The position numbers were made by a program, and so were the translations under genes. Of a stretch of DNA of 40,757 nucleotides, positions 32,092-40,619 are shown piece by piece (position 1 is the stretch's first letter; each line of letters opens with the position of its first letter). The stretch is from positions 1-40,757 of the forward strand of contig JAFRZX010000170.1 of the NCBI GenBank assembly GCA_017442315.1. The letters run 5' to 3'. Origin of the DNA: Bacteroidales bacterium. GTDB taxonomy: Bacteria > Bacteroidota > Bacteroidia > Bacteroidales > UBA932. The notes below the pieces were generated by a model. The model saw nothing but the letters and a program-made list of their open reading frames with translations. It was not told the origin of the DNA and ran no database searches.

Positions 32092-32523
32092 ATGAAAGTA
32101 AAGATTGTAAACAGATCCGCATATCCGACTCCGGCTTACGCAACCGAGAAGTCTGCGGGAATGGATCTTAAAGCAGATATTAAGGAACCTGTCACATTGA
32201 ATCCACTGGAAAGGGCAATGATCCCGACTGGTATCTTCATTTCTCTTCCAGACGGTACAGAGGCTCAGGTAAGACCAAGAAGCGGCCTTGCAGCTAAACA
32301 TGGCATTTCGGTTCTGAATGCACCAGGTACGATAGATGCGGATTACCGTGGTGAAGTGAAGGTAATACTTGTCAACTTATCCAATCAGCCATTCGTGGTG
32401 AATCCTGGAGAAAGAATTGCCCAGATGGTAGTGGCCAGATATGAAAAAGTGGAGTGGGATGAAGTCGAGGCCCTTGATGATACAGATAGGGGAGCAGGAG
32501 GTTTCGGTAGCACTGGAGTATAG
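32092..32523 (+). CDS. dut: dUTP diphosphatase
   Basis: Hydrolyses dUTP to dUMP, preventing uracil incorporation into DNA. All five trimeric dUTPase motifs are present in 143 aa: [44 protein letters not shown] and [12 protein letters not shown] 32092 (MKVKIVNRS) fits the family and is 7 nt after the GH3 stop. The strong hairpin at 32562-32591 ends the transcript. Confidence 0.97.
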
Positions 32524-32561
32524 AGGCTCTTGTAAAAAAAACAGATATATGGTATTCTTTA

Positions 32562-32591
32562 TTTTCGGCAAAGTACTAACTTTGCCGAAAA
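32562..32591 (+). terminator. Terminator after dut
   Basis: TTTTCGGCAAAGT (32562-32574) pairs perfectly with ACTTTGCCGAAAA (32579-32591) around a 4-nt loop. The run tttttt follows: a textbook intrinsic terminator. The 3-prime side contains a TAACTTTG box. Confidence 0.9.
32577..32584 (+). promoter_or_regulatory. Possible minus-7 box inside the dut terminator
   Basis: TAACTTTG matches TAnnTTTG. Transcription would start near 32591, 23 nt before the ATG of the frameshifted lipoprotein at 32614. No clear TTTG lies 19-21 nt upstream. Confidence 0.45.
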
Positions 32592-32714
32592 TTTTTTAGC
32601 AAAAGCTGTTCGTATGAATCGTATTGTGTGTTGTTTGATTCTTGCTGCCGTATCTTTCGGTTGTCAGAAACCGATGCCGGCAGATAATCAGAATGAACTT
32701 CCTCCATACACTGA

Positions 32715-32722
32715 GGGGGGGG
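32715..32722 (+). repeat. Homopolymeric G8 tract in coding sequence
   Basis: Eight consecutive G residues at about codon 35 of a lipoprotein gene. With eight, the frame closes 12 nt later; nine would open it fully. Such tracts are classic slipped-strand phase-variation sites. Confidence 0.9.
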
Positions 32723-33293
32723 AACGGATAGGATAACTCTCAGTCTCAGTGAGACAGAACTGGTCGTCCCCAAAGGACAGTATTTCCAACTTCAAGCCAT
32801 AGTCGATCCGGAAGGCACTCCTGTCACATGGGAATCTGATGATGCTGCCATTGTGCGCATAGATAAGAACGGCAGGGGAATGGCTTTCACGCTTGGTCAG
32901 ACCGTAGTCAGGGCTGTTGTTTCAGAGGAAGTTTTCTCAGAATGCGTGATCAAAGTTATAGAGGCTCCTGAGGTAGGTTCCTTCTATTATTCGGATGGTA
33001 CATGGTCTGTATCTCTTGATCCGGATAAAAACGTTGCTGGTGTTGTATTTTGGGTCGGTGACCCTACATTGGAGGATGCTGCATTGAAGCAGGATCACCC
33101 TCATTGTACCCATGGTCTTGTTGTTGCCTTGAATCATGATCAGAAAGGTTATAACTGGCAGACCGGATATGAGGCTTATGGAAAGACCGTGGGAGAGTGG
33201 ATTGAAGCAAATGTACCAGAATATGTCACTGTAACTTCTCCTTGGAATCATAATGAAAATGTCAATGCCATTCGTGGCTATAACAATACAAAA

Positions 33294-33345
33294 GCTATCG
33301 AGGCATTCAATGCTGCTGAAGAGAATGCTGCATGGCCGGTTGATG
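33294..33345 (+). repeat. 52-bp exact direct repeat, copy 1
   Basis: Identical, base for base, to 35509-35560. It encodes AIEAFNAAEENAAWPVD in the C-terminal domains of lipoproteins 1 and 3, which are clearly diverged on both sides. Confidence 0.9.
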
Positions 33346-33709
33346 TAGTCCGGTATGCAGTGCAGTATCGCTCCATTAATCCTGCACCGGAAACTAGCAG
33401 CGATTGGTATATTCCGTCGGTAAAGGAATGTGCTCTCCTGATAGTCGGTGAATTTTCAGGTGATGTGCTTGCTCTTGCCGGCAATATATACAACAAGGCA
33501 TTTCTCGATTATAAGCTTTCCCTGATAGATGGCTCTACTCCTTTGGGAAGGCATGGAGTTGATGATGATATATGGTCGAGCAACGAGCGCGATTCAGAGT
33601 ATGTCTTTTATATGTCTACCTTTGAAGGAAAGGTGTGGATGAATTGGAAGGAGTATGGCTCGGAACATCATCAGGTCCGTTGTATTCTTGCATTTTAATC
33701 TATTATGAT

Positions 33710-34567
33710 ATGAAACGTTTGCTTTCATCAATGGCTCTTGCAGCCGTTGTCGTGTTGTGTCTTTCATGTGACCGTCAAGAAACTCAGACTCAGGGACCAG
33801 AAGAAGTGAAGCAGCCGGATGTTACCAGCCTTCCTGATCCTGTAACGGGAGATTATTATTATTCTGACGGTACCTGGTCTTCTGATCTTAATCCGGAAAA
33901 GACACTGATAGGAATTGTTTATTGGGTCGGAAATCCTTCTGTTGATGATGAGGCTATGCAGCGTGAATGCCCGGAATGCGTTCACGGTCTGGTTGTGTCC
34001 TTGAATCAGGATGCTTCGCCATGGCAGACATCTATGGAGTCATATGGTGATGACGTGTCCTCATGGTTTGGTGATGAAGAAGAGTTTGCGCTTCCATATG
34101 TATCGACGCTTAATGAATCGTTGAATACCCGCAGGGGATACAGCTACACAAAGGCGCTGGAGAAATTCAATTCAGATCCGGTAAATGAGTATTATAAGGT
34201 GGATGCTGTTGAGGCAGTTCTCGAATATAGGTCAGAAGTGCCTGCACCGGTATCTTCCAGTGACTGGTATCTTCCTTCCCCTAAAGAACTTTCATTGATG
34301 TGTTCTGGTGAATATGATGGAAATATACTGAATATACCTGTTCCTTCTATAGAAATGAGGACCCTTCTCAATGACAGGCTTGTTGAAATCGAAGGTGCTT
34401 ACTGGCTCACAGGTGGCGTGTATTGGGCATCCGCAGAATATGATGACAGGGGGACGGATCAACGCGGGTGGATGGTTGCCTGGAATGTGTATTTTACTGA
34501 TGGGGAAGTGAACATCAGTTTTAAGGATTTCGGAAGTGCATATTGCCGCTATATATTGGCCTTTTAA
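33710..34567 (+). CDS. Lipoprotein with Lcl/DUF1566-like C-terminal domain (paralogue 2)
   Basis: 285 aa from ATG 33710. A lipoprotein signal ends VVLCLSC (Cys20). Unlike its neighbours it has no Ig-like domain: a short linker leads straight to the C-terminal domain (about residues 45-285). That domain has YYYSDGTWSSDLNPEK, GIVYWVGNPS, HGLVVSLNQD, SSDWYLPSPKELSLM and the closing CRYILAF. The shared W-Y-L-P-S-x-K-E-L motif is typical of the Lcl/DUF1566 fold. It lies 11 nt after paralogue 1. I reject the in-frame ATG at 33635 because it lies inside paralogue 1 and would hide the signal peptide. Function unknown. Confidence 0.82.
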   Translation: MKRLLSSMALAAVVVLCLSCDRQETQTQGPEEVKQPDVTSLPDPVTGDYYYSDGTWSSDLNPEKTLIGIVYWVGNPSVDDEAMQRECPECVHGLVVSLNQDASPWQTSMESYGDDVSSWFGDEEEFALPYVSTLNESLNTRRGYSYTKALEKFNSDPVNEYYKVDAVEAVLEYRSEVPAPVSSSDWYLPSPKELSLMCSGEYDGNILNIPVPSIEMRTLLNDRLVEIEGAYWLTGGVYWASAEYDDRGTDQRGWMVAWNVYFTDGEVNISFKDFGSAYCRYILAF

Positions 34568-34608
34568 TTGGCTTTCATGGATATTAAGAACTTTAAAATA
34601 TAATCATT

Positions 34609-35898
34609 ATGAAAAAGTTTTTTTATTTTGCCCTCTGCATGATATTGGGCTTTGTGGCTTGTAAAAAGGAAACTCCTGTTGATGAACAGGCCGGAAAAGA
34701 AGAAGTCAAGGTTACTGTAACGCTTGACATGACTGAAGTTGAACTTAAGGTAGGTGAAAGTGTATCCTTGACCGCAACTGTTACTCCTGATCTTGATGTT
34801 GAATGGGAGTCTGGCAATGAGGCTGTTGCTGTTGTGTCAGAAGAAGGAACCGTAACAGCTGTGGCTGTTGGTGAAGCAGTCATTACTGCATCTGCTGGTA
34901 ATGTGAAGGCAGAATGCCAGGTGACGGTTGGTGCTGTTGAGGTTACAGATGTGCAATTGGATCTTGGTGAATGTGCTCTTCTTGTAGGAGAAACCCTTCA
35001 GCTGACAGCAACAGTATCACCAGACAATGCAACAGATAAGACTGTTGTATGGGAAACTACCGATGAGGCAGTAGCAAGAGTAGATCAGAATGGTCTGGTT
35101 ACGGCTGCAGGTGCAGGAGAAGCTGTGATTACAGCTACATCAGGAGGTCTTTTTGCCGTATGCAATATTTCAGTCGCTCTACCTGCCGTTAAGGGTGACT
35201 ACTACTATTCTGATGGTACATATTCTTCAGATCTTGATACTTCAAAGGAACCGATAGGCATCGTATTCTGGACTGGAGACCCTACAGCAACAGACCTTAC
35301 CTTGAAAAAGGATTTTCCAGGATGCTGCCATGGTCTGGTGATTGCTCTTGATGAAATCAGGAATGTTTTCTGGCAGAAGGCCTGCAGGACTTATAATAGT
35401 ACTGTCACAGCTTGGGTAGAATCCAATAACCTTGATTTTCTCCCTCTTGTTTCCGGAATTGAACTGGAGGACCCTCTCAACAAGGTTATGGGATACAACA
35501 ACACCAAGGCTATCGAGGCATTCAATGCTGCTGAAGAGAATGCTGCATGGCCGGTTGATGCGCTTGCTACATTGGATGAATATCGCCGCAATGTACCGGC
35601 TCCTGCGACTTCATCAGACTGGTATCTTCCTTCAATAAAGGAGCTTAATCTTGCCTTTTCAGGTGATTATCCATATTCGATTACGGATTTTGATAATGAA
35701 AGCACAGAGGTGTGTGATCTGATCAATTCAAAACTTCAGGCAATACCAGGTGCAATAAAGTATGATGAGGATTATATGTCAAGTACAGAGAAGGATGCGC
35801 TTAATATCTATGATATGATGGTGTGGGCATGGTATGTTCCTGTCGAAGGAGTCGGCAAAGGAGCAGGTATCACATTCCGTCCTGTTCTTGCTTTCTAA
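34609..35898 (+). CDS. Lipoprotein with two BIG2 Ig-like domains and Lcl/DUF1566-like domain (paralogue 3)
   Basis: 429 aa. The lipoprotein signal ends GFVAC (Cys18). Two bacterial Ig-like (BIG2) domains follow: residues about 33-106 (VELKVGESVSLTATVTP, GTVTAVAVGEAVITA) and about 108-190 (LLVGETLQLTATVSP, GLVTAAGAGEAVITA). The C-terminal domain (about 196-429) has the family blocks YYYSDGTYSSDLD, HGLVIALDE, SSDWYLPSIKELNL and FRPVLAF. BIG2 domains usually extend surface adhesins and enzymes from the cell. It carries the second copy of the 52-bp repeat. Probably surface-exposed; ligand unknown. Confidence 0.85.
   Translation: MKKFFYFALCMILGFVACKKETPVDEQAGKEEVKVTVTLDMTEVELKVGESVSLTATVTPDLDVEWESGNEAVAVVSEEGTVTAVAVGEAVITASAGNVKAECQVTVGAVEVTDVQLDLGECALLVGETLQLTATVSPDNATDKTVVWETTDEAVARVDQNGLVTAAGAGEAVITATSGGLFAVCNISVALPAVKGDYYYSDGTYSSDLDTSKEPIGIVFWTGDPTATDLTLKKDFPGCCHGLVIALDEIRNVFWQKACRTYNSTVTAWVESNNLDFLPLVSGIELEDPLNKVMGYNNTKAIEAFNAAEENAAWPVDALATLDEYRRNVPAPATSSDWYLPSIKELNLAFSGDYPYSITDFDNESTEVCDLINSKLQAIPGAIKYDEDYMSSTEKDALNIYDMMVWAWYVPVEGVGKGAGITFRPVLAF
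35509..35560 (+). repeat. 52-bp exact direct repeat, copy 2
   Basis: Base-for-base copy of 33294-33345, inside the C-terminal domain of paralogue 3. The next bases on both sides differ. Confidence 0.9.
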
Positions 35899-37755: not shown

Positions 37756-37911
37756 ATGGCCCTTAACAAGAAAATCACTTGGGGGGGGGTATCATCCTAT
37801 GAAGCTCCTCTCGTAAAAACACTCGACATCATGAGTGAAGGAGTGCTGTGTCAGAGTCTTGACAGAGCTGACAGCGCGTATGATTACGAAAATGATTTAG
37901 GTGAAATCTAA
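37756..37911 (+). CDS. Small peptide with in-frame G9 tract and YEAP…LCQS motif
   Basis: 51 aa starting MALNKKITWGGVSS, then YEAPLVKTLDIMSEGVLCQS and an acidic tail (DYENDLGEI). It has no signal peptide. The pattern Y-x-x-P, about ten residues, E-x-x-L-C-x-S resembles small orphan peptides that I recall near lipoprotein genes in Bacteroidales; this is recollection only. An ATG at 37717 could add 13 residues. Nine G residues (37781-37789) encode Trp-Gly-Gly; any change not divisible by three would end the frame early. It lies 14 nt before the lipoprotein ATG, so co-transcription is likely. Function unknown. Confidence 0.6.
   Translation: MALNKKITWGGVSSYEAPLVKTLDIMSEGVLCQSLDRADSAYDYENDLGEI
37781..37789 (+). 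repeat. Homopolymeric G9 tract in coding sequence
   Basis: Nine G residues near codon 9 of the small peptide gene. The frame is open at nine. Both eight and ten G residues bring early stops. Confidence 0.9.
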
Positions 37912-37925
37912 AACTGCTGACGAGT

Positions 37926-40619
37926 ATGAAAAAGATTCTATCAAATTTAATGCTCGTTGCAGCAGCTGCAATGGCATTTTCTGCATGTCAGAAAACAGAA
38001 ATGGTCGAGCCTGAGACTTCTCAGGAAGTAATGTTGACCTTTGCGTCTGAGAAACCGGCATTCGATGACGAGACTAAGACTGAGTGGACCGGTGAGACTA
38101 TCCAGTGGTCTGCTGGGGATAAGATCTCCGTAGCTTATACCGTTAACGGAAATTGGCAGAATGCATCGGGAGATGCATCCGGTGATGCGAAGCTTTACAA
38201 GTCAGACGCGTTGGAAGCGGCAACAGAGACTGCTAAGTTTAATGTTTCGGCATCTTTTGAAGGTACTACAGAAGGAACGCATGTCTTTTATGGCGTTTAT
38301 CCTGCTCCGTCATCTACTAGTTTTGCTGATGCTCCAGTGGCTACCTTGACAGTTCCTTCAATTCAGACTCCGGGAGCTGCTTCTTTCGATGGCTCGGCTG
38401 ACCTTATGACAGGTGTTTCCGTTGGTGAATTTACTTCACTTCCAACTGAACCCATTTCAATGAAATGGACTCGTCTTGTGGCTCATGCCAATATAACATT
38501 GAAGGCACTCAATGGTGTAACCGCAGGTGAAACTGTATCAAGCATAACGCTTACAGCACAGGAAGGTGCAAACCTTGTGGGCAGCCAGAAGGTTGATATA
38601 ACAGCCAATACGGTTGTAAACAACAATAACGAATCTAATGTCCTTGAACTTAATGGCGGTAATCTTTCAATTGATGCTTCTGGAAACATTGAGTTCTGGG
38701 CTTGTGTGCTTCCTGAGACTTTGACTTCTCTTGCTGTAGTAGTTGAGACCAACAAGGCGACTTACACTCGTGAGATAACAGGTATCTCAAAGACTTTCAA
38801 GCAGAATGCCCGCAATACCCTTTCTATAAAGATGAATGAGGCTACCCGTGTGGCGAAGGAGGAAGAGTCATGGGTACTTGTAACTCCGGCAGATGGCTTG
38901 ACAGAAGGAACATATGTTTTGGTTGTTTCTACAGATACTAAAACAGGTGCTTTGGTCAGCACAAATGGTACAAGTGCTGCACCAAAATTCAACACAAGTA
39001 TATCAGTTTCAGACAACACTCTTAACGGTGTTACAGAGGCTATGCAGTTTGACTTAAGTGGTACAACTGGAAATTACAAGCTTGCAGTTACAGGTCAGAC
39101 TACCGACTATCTGTATACTACAAATGGAAATAATGGTGTCAGAGTAGGAACAAATACAAATAACGTCTGGACAATTACACAGCATGAGTCAAATGCAGAT
39201 GCATTCGTATTTAAGTGCAATGCGACCTCTCGTTACCTTGGAGTATACAATAATGCTGACTGGCGTTGTTATACTGCATATGATGCGGATAACTTTACGA
39301 ATGGTAGTGGTAGTTCACAGATTTATCTCTATAAGAAGCAGTCTGGTCCGGAAGTTCCAGATACTACCCCTTCAATTACTGTTGATGAGACTTTGGAACT
39401 TACATCTGCAGAGTCAGAAGGTACGATATCAGTAACCTACAAGAATCTTGAGGCTCTTGATGCTGCAGCATATTCTGATGCTGATTGTACAGTTGACTGT
39501 GACTGGCTTGTTGCTGTATGGGAGAATGATGCAGTATCATACATTGCTGCAGCAAATGAAGGAGAAGAGAGAACTGCATATATTCAGATCTACGCCCTCG
39601 ATGCTGAAGCAAATGAGTATACTAAGGTCATCACGGTAACTCAGGCTGCATATGTAGATCCATCAGTAATTGAGGAACTTACTGTAGAAGAGTTCTTGGC
39701 GAAAGAAGTGAGTACAGAAGTGTTCTACCAGCTTACTGGTACGATTAAGAATCTTACAAATACGACATATGGAAATTTCGACCTTGTTGATGAAACGGGA
39801 AGTGTATATGTGTATGGTCTCAAAGAAAATGAATCAGCCGGTAATCAGACATTTGCTAATTTAGGACTTAAAGAAGGTGATGTTGTCACCATTATTGGAC
39901 CTCGTTCAGATTATAATGGTACAGCACAGGTTGGAACATCTTCTGTTAAGGCATATTATGTCAGCCATCTGACTGCTACTGATGCTCCAGCAATTTCTTT
40001 TGCTGATAACACTGTGACGATTGAATCTGAAACAGGTGCTACTATTTATTATACTACAGATGGCAATGATCCGACAACATCTTCAGATGTTTATTCTGCT
40101 CCATTTGAGGTGACTGAGGCAAATAGCCCTATGACTGTTAAGGCAATTGCTGTTGCTGATGGAAAAGTAGCATCTGTAGTGGCTTCTAAGACTTGTACAT
40201 ATGTAGATCCAAATGCAGGTGGTGAACTTGTTACTGAAACGTTGAATATTACAGGTACTACTGGTGATTTGGCATCAGACAATAGCTCAATTTCCTGGGA
40301 GGGAACATACTTCACATGTATTAATGAAAAGGCTAATAGTACTACAGCAATTCGTACAAGTGATTCTGCTCACTATCGTGTTTATGCGAATTCAAAACTA
40401 AATTTTTCAGCAAAGAATGGCACTACTTTCAATAAGCTAGTTCTTACCTGCATATCAAGTTATGTTGCTAATACAACTAACGTTACTTATCCGGATAATC
40501 TTGATGTAGCTGTCAGCGGAACGACAGTGACCATTACTTGCACAGAGCCAGTATCTGAGATATCACTTACTATTAAAAAACAAATTCGCATAAGTAAAGT
40601 TGAATCAACACTTCAATGA
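37926..40619 (+). CDS. Mosaic surface lipoprotein (fimbrillin-like, BACON, OB-fold, chitobiase-C-like domains)
   Basis: 897 aa. The lipoprotein signal ends AFSAC (Cys21). Residues about 35-305 look like a fimbrillin-type domain (DDETKTEWTGETIQWSAGDK, HVFYGVYPAP, NARNTLSIKM). Residues 313-472 form a beta-rich module opening SWVLVTPADGLTEGTYVLVV. Residues 482-576 are BACON-like (ITVTQAAY at the end). Residues about 585-682 look like an OB fold (YQLTGTIKNLTNTTYGNFDL). Residues 688-760 are chitobiase-C-like (ATIYYTTDGNDPTTSS). The last 130 are an unassigned beta-sandwich. Domain calls are by eye. It stops at TGA 40617, but the same frame continues as protein-like sequence. Probably cell-surface; ligand unknown. 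Confidence 0.82.
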   Translation: MKKILSNLMLVAAAAMAFSACQKTEMVEPETSQEVMLTFASEKPAFDDETKTEWTGETIQWSAGDKISVAYTVNGNWQNASGDASGDAKLYKSDALEAATETAKFNVSASFEGTTEGTHVFYGVYPAPSSTSFADAPVATLTVPSIQTPGAASFDGSADLMTGVSVGEFTSLPTEPISMKWTRLVAHANITLKALNGVTAGETVSSITLTAQEGANLVGSQKVDITANTVVNNNNESNVLELNGGNLSIDASGNIEFWACVLPETLTSLAVVVETNKATYTREITGISKTFKQNARNTLSIKMNEATRVAKEEESWVLVTPADGLTEGTYVLVVSTDTKTGALVSTNGTSAAPKFNTSISVSDNTLNGVTEAMQFDLSGTTGNYKLAVTGQTTDYLYTTNGNNGVRVGTNTNNVWTITQHESNADAFVFKCNATSRYLGVYNNADWRCYTAYDADNFTNGSGSSQIYLYKKQSGPEVPDTTPSITVDETLELTSAESEGTISVTYKNLEALDAAAYSDADCTVDCDWLVAVWENDAVSYIAAANEGEERTAYIQIYALDAEANEYTKVITVTQAAYVDPSVIEELTVEEFLAKEVSTEVFYQLTGTIKNLTNTTYGNFDLVDETGSVYVYGLKENESAGNQTFANLGLKEGDVVTIIGPRSDYNGTAQVGTSSVKAYYVSHLTATDAPAISFADNTVTIESETGATIYYTTDGNDPTTSSDVYSAPFEVTEANSPMTVKAIAVADGKVASVVASKTCTYVDPNAGGELVTETLNITGTTGDLASDNSSISWEGTYFTCINEKANSTTAIRTSDSAHYRVYANSKLNFSAKNGTTFNKLVLTCISSYVANTTNVTYPDNLDVAVSGTTVTITCTEPVSEISLTIKKQIRISKVESTLQ

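What the first reader, a model, noticed from the sequence alone, without database searches (positions are those of the whole stretch)
32614..33698. Lipoprotein gene apparently switched OFF by a G8 tract; G9 would open it
The signal-peptide segment and the rest of the gene are in adjacent frames that meet exactly at eight G residues. Both halves look fully functional (intact lipobox, uninterrupted 300-codon downstream frame). That is the pattern of slipped-strand phase variation rather than random decay. Surface lipoproteins are typical targets. Poly-G switching is well known in Campylobacter and Neisseria, while Bacteroidales are better known for DNA inversion, so a homopolymer switch here would be unusual.
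Basis: partly seen in the sequence, partly recalled or inferred. Interest (0 to 1): 0.72.

Follow-up and report, generated by a model that had tools for sequence, protein, structure and literature searches.

The report
Poly-G on/off switches in Cryptobacteroides
A surface-lipoprotein gene of a gut bacterium is interrupted exactly at a run of eight G bases, and it is one of about two dozen such runs in this genome, nine of them beside promoter boxes, so the bacterium probably switches surface genes by gaining or losing a G, which is not the switching method its order is known for.

Summary
G8 lies at 32715-32722; the signal-peptide frame (ATG 32614) stops at 32736, and the adjacent frame is open from the tract to 33698. 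That half keeps its Big_2 and C-terminal domains and models at pLDDT 91; the best solved match is a Bacteroides fimbrial protein (4EPS).

The tract is one of a set. The genome (a Candidatus Cryptobacteroides assembly) has 24 G>=8 tracts but only four G7; three of 60 relatives show the same gap most strongly. Nine of the 24 directly precede a TAnnTTTG promoter box, against 1 of 99 G5-6 runs. Three of the 24 break a gene exactly at the tract; seven more such breaks occur in the three relatives (SusC, DeoR, HTCS, lipoprotein, leader ORF). Two homologous lipoproteins elsewhere carry an in-frame G8 in the corresponding linker.

Best reading: a poly-G contingency locus assembled in its OFF state, one of a set acting by frame and by promoter spacing. 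No reads or second strain could be examined, so variation and reversibility are inferred; assembly error or fixed decay is not excluded. Unexplained: tracts followed by C are almost always exactly G8 and rarely broken.

The parts
32614..32736 (+). Upstream frame: signal peptide and lipobox-like Cys, stops just after the tract
32715..32722 (+). G8 tract at which the two frames meet
32715..33698 (+). Downstream frame: 327 codons, Big_2 domain plus C-terminal domain like that of 4EPS
33704..34567 (+). Intact paralogous lipoprotein gene (39% identical), no G>=8 tract
34609..35898 (+). Intact paralogous lipoprotein gene with Big_2 domains (42% identical), no G>=8 tract
32561..32592 (+). Terminator-like hairpin (14 pairs) behind the preceding dUTPase-like gene; it holds a TAACTTTG box that may be the lipoprotein gene's -7 element (inference)
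37756..37911 (+). 51-codon leader ORF with an in-frame G9, before a lipoprotein gene
37781..37789 (+). Second poly-G tract of the window (G9)

Best explanation
The G8 tract at 32715-32722 is a contingency locus: a hypermutable homopolymer in the linker behind the lipid-anchor cysteine of a surface lipoprotein. Gain or loss of G during replication moves the mature protein in or out of frame with its signal peptide. The assembled sequence is the OFF state. It belongs to a genome-wide set of G8-G10 tracts that act in two ways: by reading frame (mostly N-terminal parts of lipoproteins, SusC receptors, an outer-membrane barrel, leader ORFs, some regulators) and by the spacing between the -33 and -7 promoter boxes. 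Shown: tract, frame offset, well-preserved halves, length distribution, promoter coincidence, repeated frame breaks at tracts in related species. Inferred: slippage, reversibility, switching of expression, surface exposure, adhesin role.
For: Frames meet at G8 and both halves look sound. 24 G>=8 tracts against 4 G7 in this genome; 27 v 1, 34 v 4 and 18 v 4 in G032, G029, G010; 439 v 886 pooled in the other 57 genomes. Nine of 24 tracts lie 0-8 nt before TAnnTTTG, against 1 of 99 G5-6, 4 of 644 G4 and 6 of 68 A>=7 runs; 6 of the 9 have a TTTG 18-22 nt before that box, while 31 of 37 pattern matches to the canonical promoter in a sample use 19 or 20; all nine precede a gene scored as starting with a signal peptide (crude score). 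Ten genes broken exactly at a tract in four genomes; in the DeoR case Pfam DeoRC stops at position 107 in one frame and resumes at 107 in the other. Homologues L110 and L117 carry G8 in frame in the linker behind the lipobox. The outer-membrane gene at C137 is broken at G8 here, at G6 in G151, and is in frame with G6 in G124.
Against: No reads and no second strain were seen. Tracts at shared sites in G000 and G032 keep their length (LacI C8, FAD-enzyme G8, leader-ORF G9), which is not what fast slippage predicts. G>=8 runs are not in excess over a first-order model (25.8 expected). TGTGA near G8 is not enriched in the genus (61 matches v 54 reversed control). Most homologues lack the tract. 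Promoter use is weak in G032 and G029 (2 of 26, 2 of 34). C-followed tracts are almost never broken (1 of 29, my hand count). The four outlier genomes were chosen after seeing the counts.
Confidence: 0.68

Rival explanations
1. Fixed decay: a single frameshift arose at the most mutable spot of a gene no longer needed; the two intact paralogues next door do the work.
For: Two intact paralogues follow directly; an indel in a homopolymer is a common kind of frameshift (established); no close ortholog turned up in 60 relatives (best 37% identity).
Against: 327 codons stay open with the family's 20 invariant columns and model well; nine other genes are broken at the same kind of tract in four genomes.
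Confidence: 0.15
2. Assembly or consensus error: the true tract has another length and the gene is in frame.
For: The genome is a fragmented assembly, 173 contigs, 88.6% complete, sequencing method unknown to me; homopolymers are where such errors fall; the other broken genes could be the same error in other assemblies. In the 400-kb sample 2 coding A>=7 runs were also called split, against 11 intact; one ends at a terminator, the other I could not settle.
Against: In the same sample no G5-6 run was called split, against 58 intact; error does not explain the gap at G7 or nine promoter positions.
Confidence: 0.12
3. Programmed slippage: polymerase or ribosome slips on the G run, so some full-length protein is made without any DNA change.
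For: A run of G lets the pairing shift by one base (established principle); in-frame and broken states both occur.
Against: Does not explain tracts in promoters, nor the different lengths in orthologs. No stimulatory structure behind the tract was looked for.
Confidence: 0.05

Closest known systems
Poly-G contingency loci of Campylobacter, Helicobacter and Neisseria (slipped-strand phase variation)
   Same: G8 or longer, frame offset at the tract, N-terminal or promoter-spacer position, surface genes
   Different: Here in Bacteroidales; promoters are of the TTTG / TAnnTTTG type; lengths cluster tightly at 8-9; switching not shown
Invertible promoters and SusC/SusD inversions of Bacteroides
   Same: Same order of bacteria, same kinds of target (SusC, surface proteins)
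   Different: No inverted repeats flank this tract; the candidate variable element is a homopolymer, not a DNA inversion
Fimbrial protein BACOVA_04982 of Bacteroides ovatus (PDB 4EPS)
   Same: C-terminal domain matches by sequence (E 2.7e-10) and fold (E 5e-18, TMq 0.57, rmsd 11.3 over 384 columns)
   Different: Here the domain is joined to a Big_2 domain; a pilus role is inference

Membership tests
Homopolymeric contingency locus (slipped-strand phase variation) | Long homopolymer at which the frame is lost, both halves well preserved | tested here: met
Homopolymeric contingency locus (slipped-strand phase variation) | Tracts present as a class beyond background | tested here: met
   24 G>=8 v 4 G7; but no excess over a first-order model
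Homopolymeric contingency locus (slipped-strand phase variation) | Same tract position in related genes or species with different length or state | tested here: inconclusive
   L110 and L117 have a linker G8 in frame; C137 gene differs in length and state across G000, G151, G124; but three G000/G032 site pairs keep their length
Homopolymeric contingency locus (slipped-strand phase variation) | Mixture of tract lengths in one population | not testable with these tools
   no reads available
Homopolymeric contingency locus (slipped-strand phase variation) | Reversible switching of expression | not testable with these tools
   needs culture or reporters
DNA-inversion phase variation of Bacteroidales | Inverted repeats flanking promoter or gene segment | tested here: not met
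   in 32400-34700 only the terminator hairpin and one 23-nt pair, 74% complementary, 909 nt apart, both downstream of the tract
Big_2 domain protein | Pfam Big_2 above its cut-off | tested here: met
   32.8 bits v 22.8
Lcl_C (DUF1566-like) domain | Pfam Lcl_C above its cut-off | tested here: not met
   14.4 bits v 34.9

The most novel reading that the evidence does not exclude
Part of these tracts is not ordinary slippage sequence but a DNA-level motif read or written by an unknown factor: G8 followed by C (often CAG), fixed at length 8, on either strand and in any frame, kept at shared sites between species, beside a second, variable class followed by A or T that does the switching.
Probability: 0.12. 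Interest if true: 0.82.

Novelty: new variant of a known kind. Interest (0 to 1): 0.64.

Why it matters
Gut Bacteroidales are known for DNA inversion as their phase-variation mechanism (PMC12632263, passages). A poly-G set of about 20-35 sites per genome, in both promoters and coding frames, would be a second, independent bet-hedging system in a species-rich and (recalled) largely uncultured gut genus. It can be checked at once in existing metagenome reads, where tract lengths can be counted. It also matters for annotation: some 'pseudogenes' at G8-G10 in such assemblies may be OFF states.

Tried and rejected
Lipobox-plus-tract as a genus-wide signature: 61 matches against 54 for the reversed pattern in 151 genomes, so no enrichment. 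In named genomes 31 stretches (30 loci) encode relatives at 26-41% identity; 3 of 30 loci hold any G or C run of 7 or more and 2 hold it inside the gene. Replication-polarity idea: the poly-G strand has positive local GC skew in 19 of 21 loci of G000 and 23 of 27 of G032, but 17 of 33 in G029 and 9 of 18 in G010, so not general. DNA inversion: no flanking inverted repeats. An automatic split test was too noisy: G4 10 split v 332 intact, G3 56 v 1898, A6 5 v 26, A>=7 2 v 11, G5-6 0 v 58 in the sample; for G>=8 tracts 8 v 31, of which I hold L239 and L282 as real, L013 and L016 as promoter tracts, and did not follow up L249, L252, L268 (C sense) and L307. I therefore read frames by eye; several broken genes fail that script's thresholds. 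Of the seven strong C137-gene loci, the script landed on a neighbouring gene in three (L077, the gene itself, and homologues L079, L080); not repeated. Of 30 homologue loci, 20 were looked at for a tract. Literature: eight searches on the switching question listed no paper on poly-G phase variation in Bacteroidales; the lists were capped (for example 20 of 44, 20 of 36, 20 of 38, 10 of 266) and cover open-licence PMC papers only; two more asked about 4EPS and gave nothing of use. The 4EPS paper I looked up by recalled id is not held.

Full report
OBSERVATION. The window is one whole contig of 40757 bases, C164 of an assembly of 2.80 Mb in 173 contigs, 88.6% complete. G8 stands at 32715-32722. 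The frame from ATG 32614 encodes a signal peptide with a Cys (MNRIVCCLILAAVSFGCQK) and stops at 32736. The adjacent frame is closed just before the tract and open from it to 33695, 327 codons.

IDENTITY OF THE GENE. The downstream part has a Big_2 domain (32.8 bits against a cut-off of 22.8) and only a sub-threshold Lcl_C match (14.4 against 34.9). Two intact paralogues follow, 39% and 42% identical. Relatives exist in named Bacteroidales genomes (31 stretches, 30 loci). An alignment of 13 members, the broken gene included, has 20 invariant columns. AlphaFold2 gives mean pLDDT 91.2 for the downstream frame as it stands. The best solved match is 4EPS, titled a fimbrial protein of Bacteroides ovatus, by sequence (E 2.7e-10) and by fold (E 5e-18, TMq 0.57, but rmsd 11.3 over 384 columns). 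So the gene looks functional apart from the frame. An adhesin or pilus role is inference.

ORGANISM. A homologue record named Candidatus Cryptobacteroides merdavium (L110) is matched at 100% by genome G252 of the window's own genus. So the genus is most likely Candidatus Cryptobacteroides, order Bacteroidales.

THE TRACT IS ONE OF A SET. The genome has 24 runs of G>=8, both strands counted: 16 G8, 8 G9, none longer. It has only 4 runs of exactly G7. In a 400-kb sample, which I took from contigs already known to hold tracts, G/C runs number 644, 88, 11, 0, 4, 2 for lengths 4 to 9, while A and T runs fall off smoothly. By the fall from G4 to G6 about two runs of G>=8 would be expected in the genome (my extrapolation). 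A first-order Markov model expects 25.8, so by that model there is no excess; what stands out is the gap at G6-G7. Among 61 genomes, G7 against G>=8 is 1 v 27 in G032, 4 v 34 in G029, 4 v 18 in G010 and 4 v 24 here, but 886 v 439 in the other 57. I picked these four after seeing the counts; six further genomes pass P<0.01 more weakly (G005, G007, G018, G021, G030, G035).

PROMOTERS. Nine of the 24 tracts lie within 8 nt before a TAnnTTTG box. The same test gives 1 of 99 G5-6, 4 of 644 G4, 18 of 3959 G3 and 6 of 68 A>=7 runs. TAnnTTTG at -7 and TTTG at -33 are the consensus of the main Bacteroides sigma factor (PMC7366714, passages seen). Of the nine, six have TTTG 18 to 22 nt before the -7 box and three do not; five of the six share the module AAAAATTTGGAAAAGT. 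Pattern matches to the canonical promoter in the sample plus the window use spacing 19 (19 sites) or 20 (12 sites) out of 37 (matches, not mapped promoters). One G more or less would thus move such a promoter into or out of the preferred spacing. All nine are followed, 36 to 103 nt on, by a gene whose start my crude score calls a signal peptide. In the genus, G7-N0-4-TANNTTTG occurs in 12 of 151 genomes: 7 distinct sites here with 0 for the reversed control; 16 distinct sites against 7 control matches in the other 150. In G032, G029 and G010 the tracts near a box are 2 of 26, 2 of 34 and 4 of 18. So promoter use is strong here, moderate in G010 and weak in the other two.

FRAMES BROKEN AT TRACTS. 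I read 102 distinct tracts of four genomes (24, 26, 34, 18; two identical copies in G032 counted once). Ten genes are broken exactly at the tract. In this genome: the window gene, an outer-membrane barrel gene (C137) and a gene at C168 with poly-C on the sense strand (weak, sub-threshold OmpA-like matches). In G032: a DeoR regulator and a leader ORF. In G029: three SusC genes and a hybrid two-component regulator. In G010: a lipoprotein with the same layout as the window gene. One more (L291) is ambiguous. Family matches on both sides of the break were found for the DeoR gene, two SusC genes and the regulator (the STN and Y_Y_Y matches are below their cut-offs). About 41 tracts lie in frame inside open genes by my hand reading. 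An automatic test called 0 split and 58 intact among G5-6 runs of the sample, but also 2 split and 11 intact among A>=7 runs and 10 against 332 among G4, so it is noisy.

RELATIVES OF THE TRACT. L110 and L117, lipoproteins of the same C-terminal family, 68% identical to each other over 455 residues, both carry G8 in frame beginning 8 codons behind the lipobox Cys; in the window gene it begins 17 codons behind. Of 20 homologue loci listed, these two included, no other has a tract in the linker; the own-genome member at C171 has G8 just before its ATG; four (L213, L216, L219, L221) showed no usable N-terminus; ten further loci were not looked at. The C137 barrel gene is broken at G8 here, broken at G6 in G151, in frame with G6 in G124, and lacks a tract in two others. 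Against this, the LacI, FAD-enzyme and leader-ORF tracts shared with G032 have the same length in both.

AN UNEXPLAINED RULE. Of 40 tracts followed by C, 39 are exactly G8; of 62 followed by A or T, 28 are G8, 32 G9, 2 G10 (Fisher P 7e-9). G8-CAG makes up 23 of 67 G8 tracts. After G4 and G5 runs CA is about one in ten. In my hand count 28 C-followed tracts are in frame and 1 broken, against 13 and 8 for A/T-followed (P 0.0025; the leader ORF makes it 13 and 9). The window tract is of the A/T class. I have no mechanism for this.

COMPARISON. Reviews, seen as passages only, describe Bacteroides phase variation as DNA inversion (PMC12632263; PMC11868660). One paper raises slippage for a C run in B. 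fragilis (PMC3090145, passages). A survey of 99 genomes found poly-G of 7-8 over-represented in only nine (PMC2831843, passages). Eight searches listed no poly-G switching in Bacteroidales (calls and limits under tried and rejected). Poly-G switching in Campylobacter, Helicobacter and Neisseria is established knowledge.

VERDICT. The larger finding is the set of tracts, in promoters as well as frames, in some species of this genus. Variation and reversibility remain to be shown from reads.

Noticed in passing
window 37756-37911 (G9 at 37781-37789): A 51-codon leader ORF with an in-frame G9 precedes a BACON-domain lipoprotein gene (37926-40619); two relatives in G032 carry G9 at the same place, one in frame (L278), one broken (L259).
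   Followed up: partly
L232-L309, window, L009-L028, L038: Tracts followed by C are almost always exactly G8, often G8-CAG, whatever the strand, frame or coding state; several G010 tracts instead have ATA-G8-TA flanks.
   Followed up: partly
L015 (G000 C76:54424-54431): G8 ends five bases before the ATG of what looks like a UpxY-type capsule antiterminator (name recalled from its sequence, no family search).
   Followed up: no
window 32561-32592: A strong terminator hairpin holds a TAACTTTG box just before the lipoprotein gene, so terminator and promoter may overlap.
   Followed up: no
L190 (genome G017): G10 in frame inside a signal peptide (MRIKITAFAMIALLCLAGGGMRVAAQ), the same layout as the broken C137 gene.
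   Followed up: no
L027/L268 and L011/L275: An FAD-enzyme-like gene and a LacI-like gene keep an internal G8 (or C8) at the same site in two species, 80% and 87% identical in protein there (gene names recalled).
   Followed up: partly
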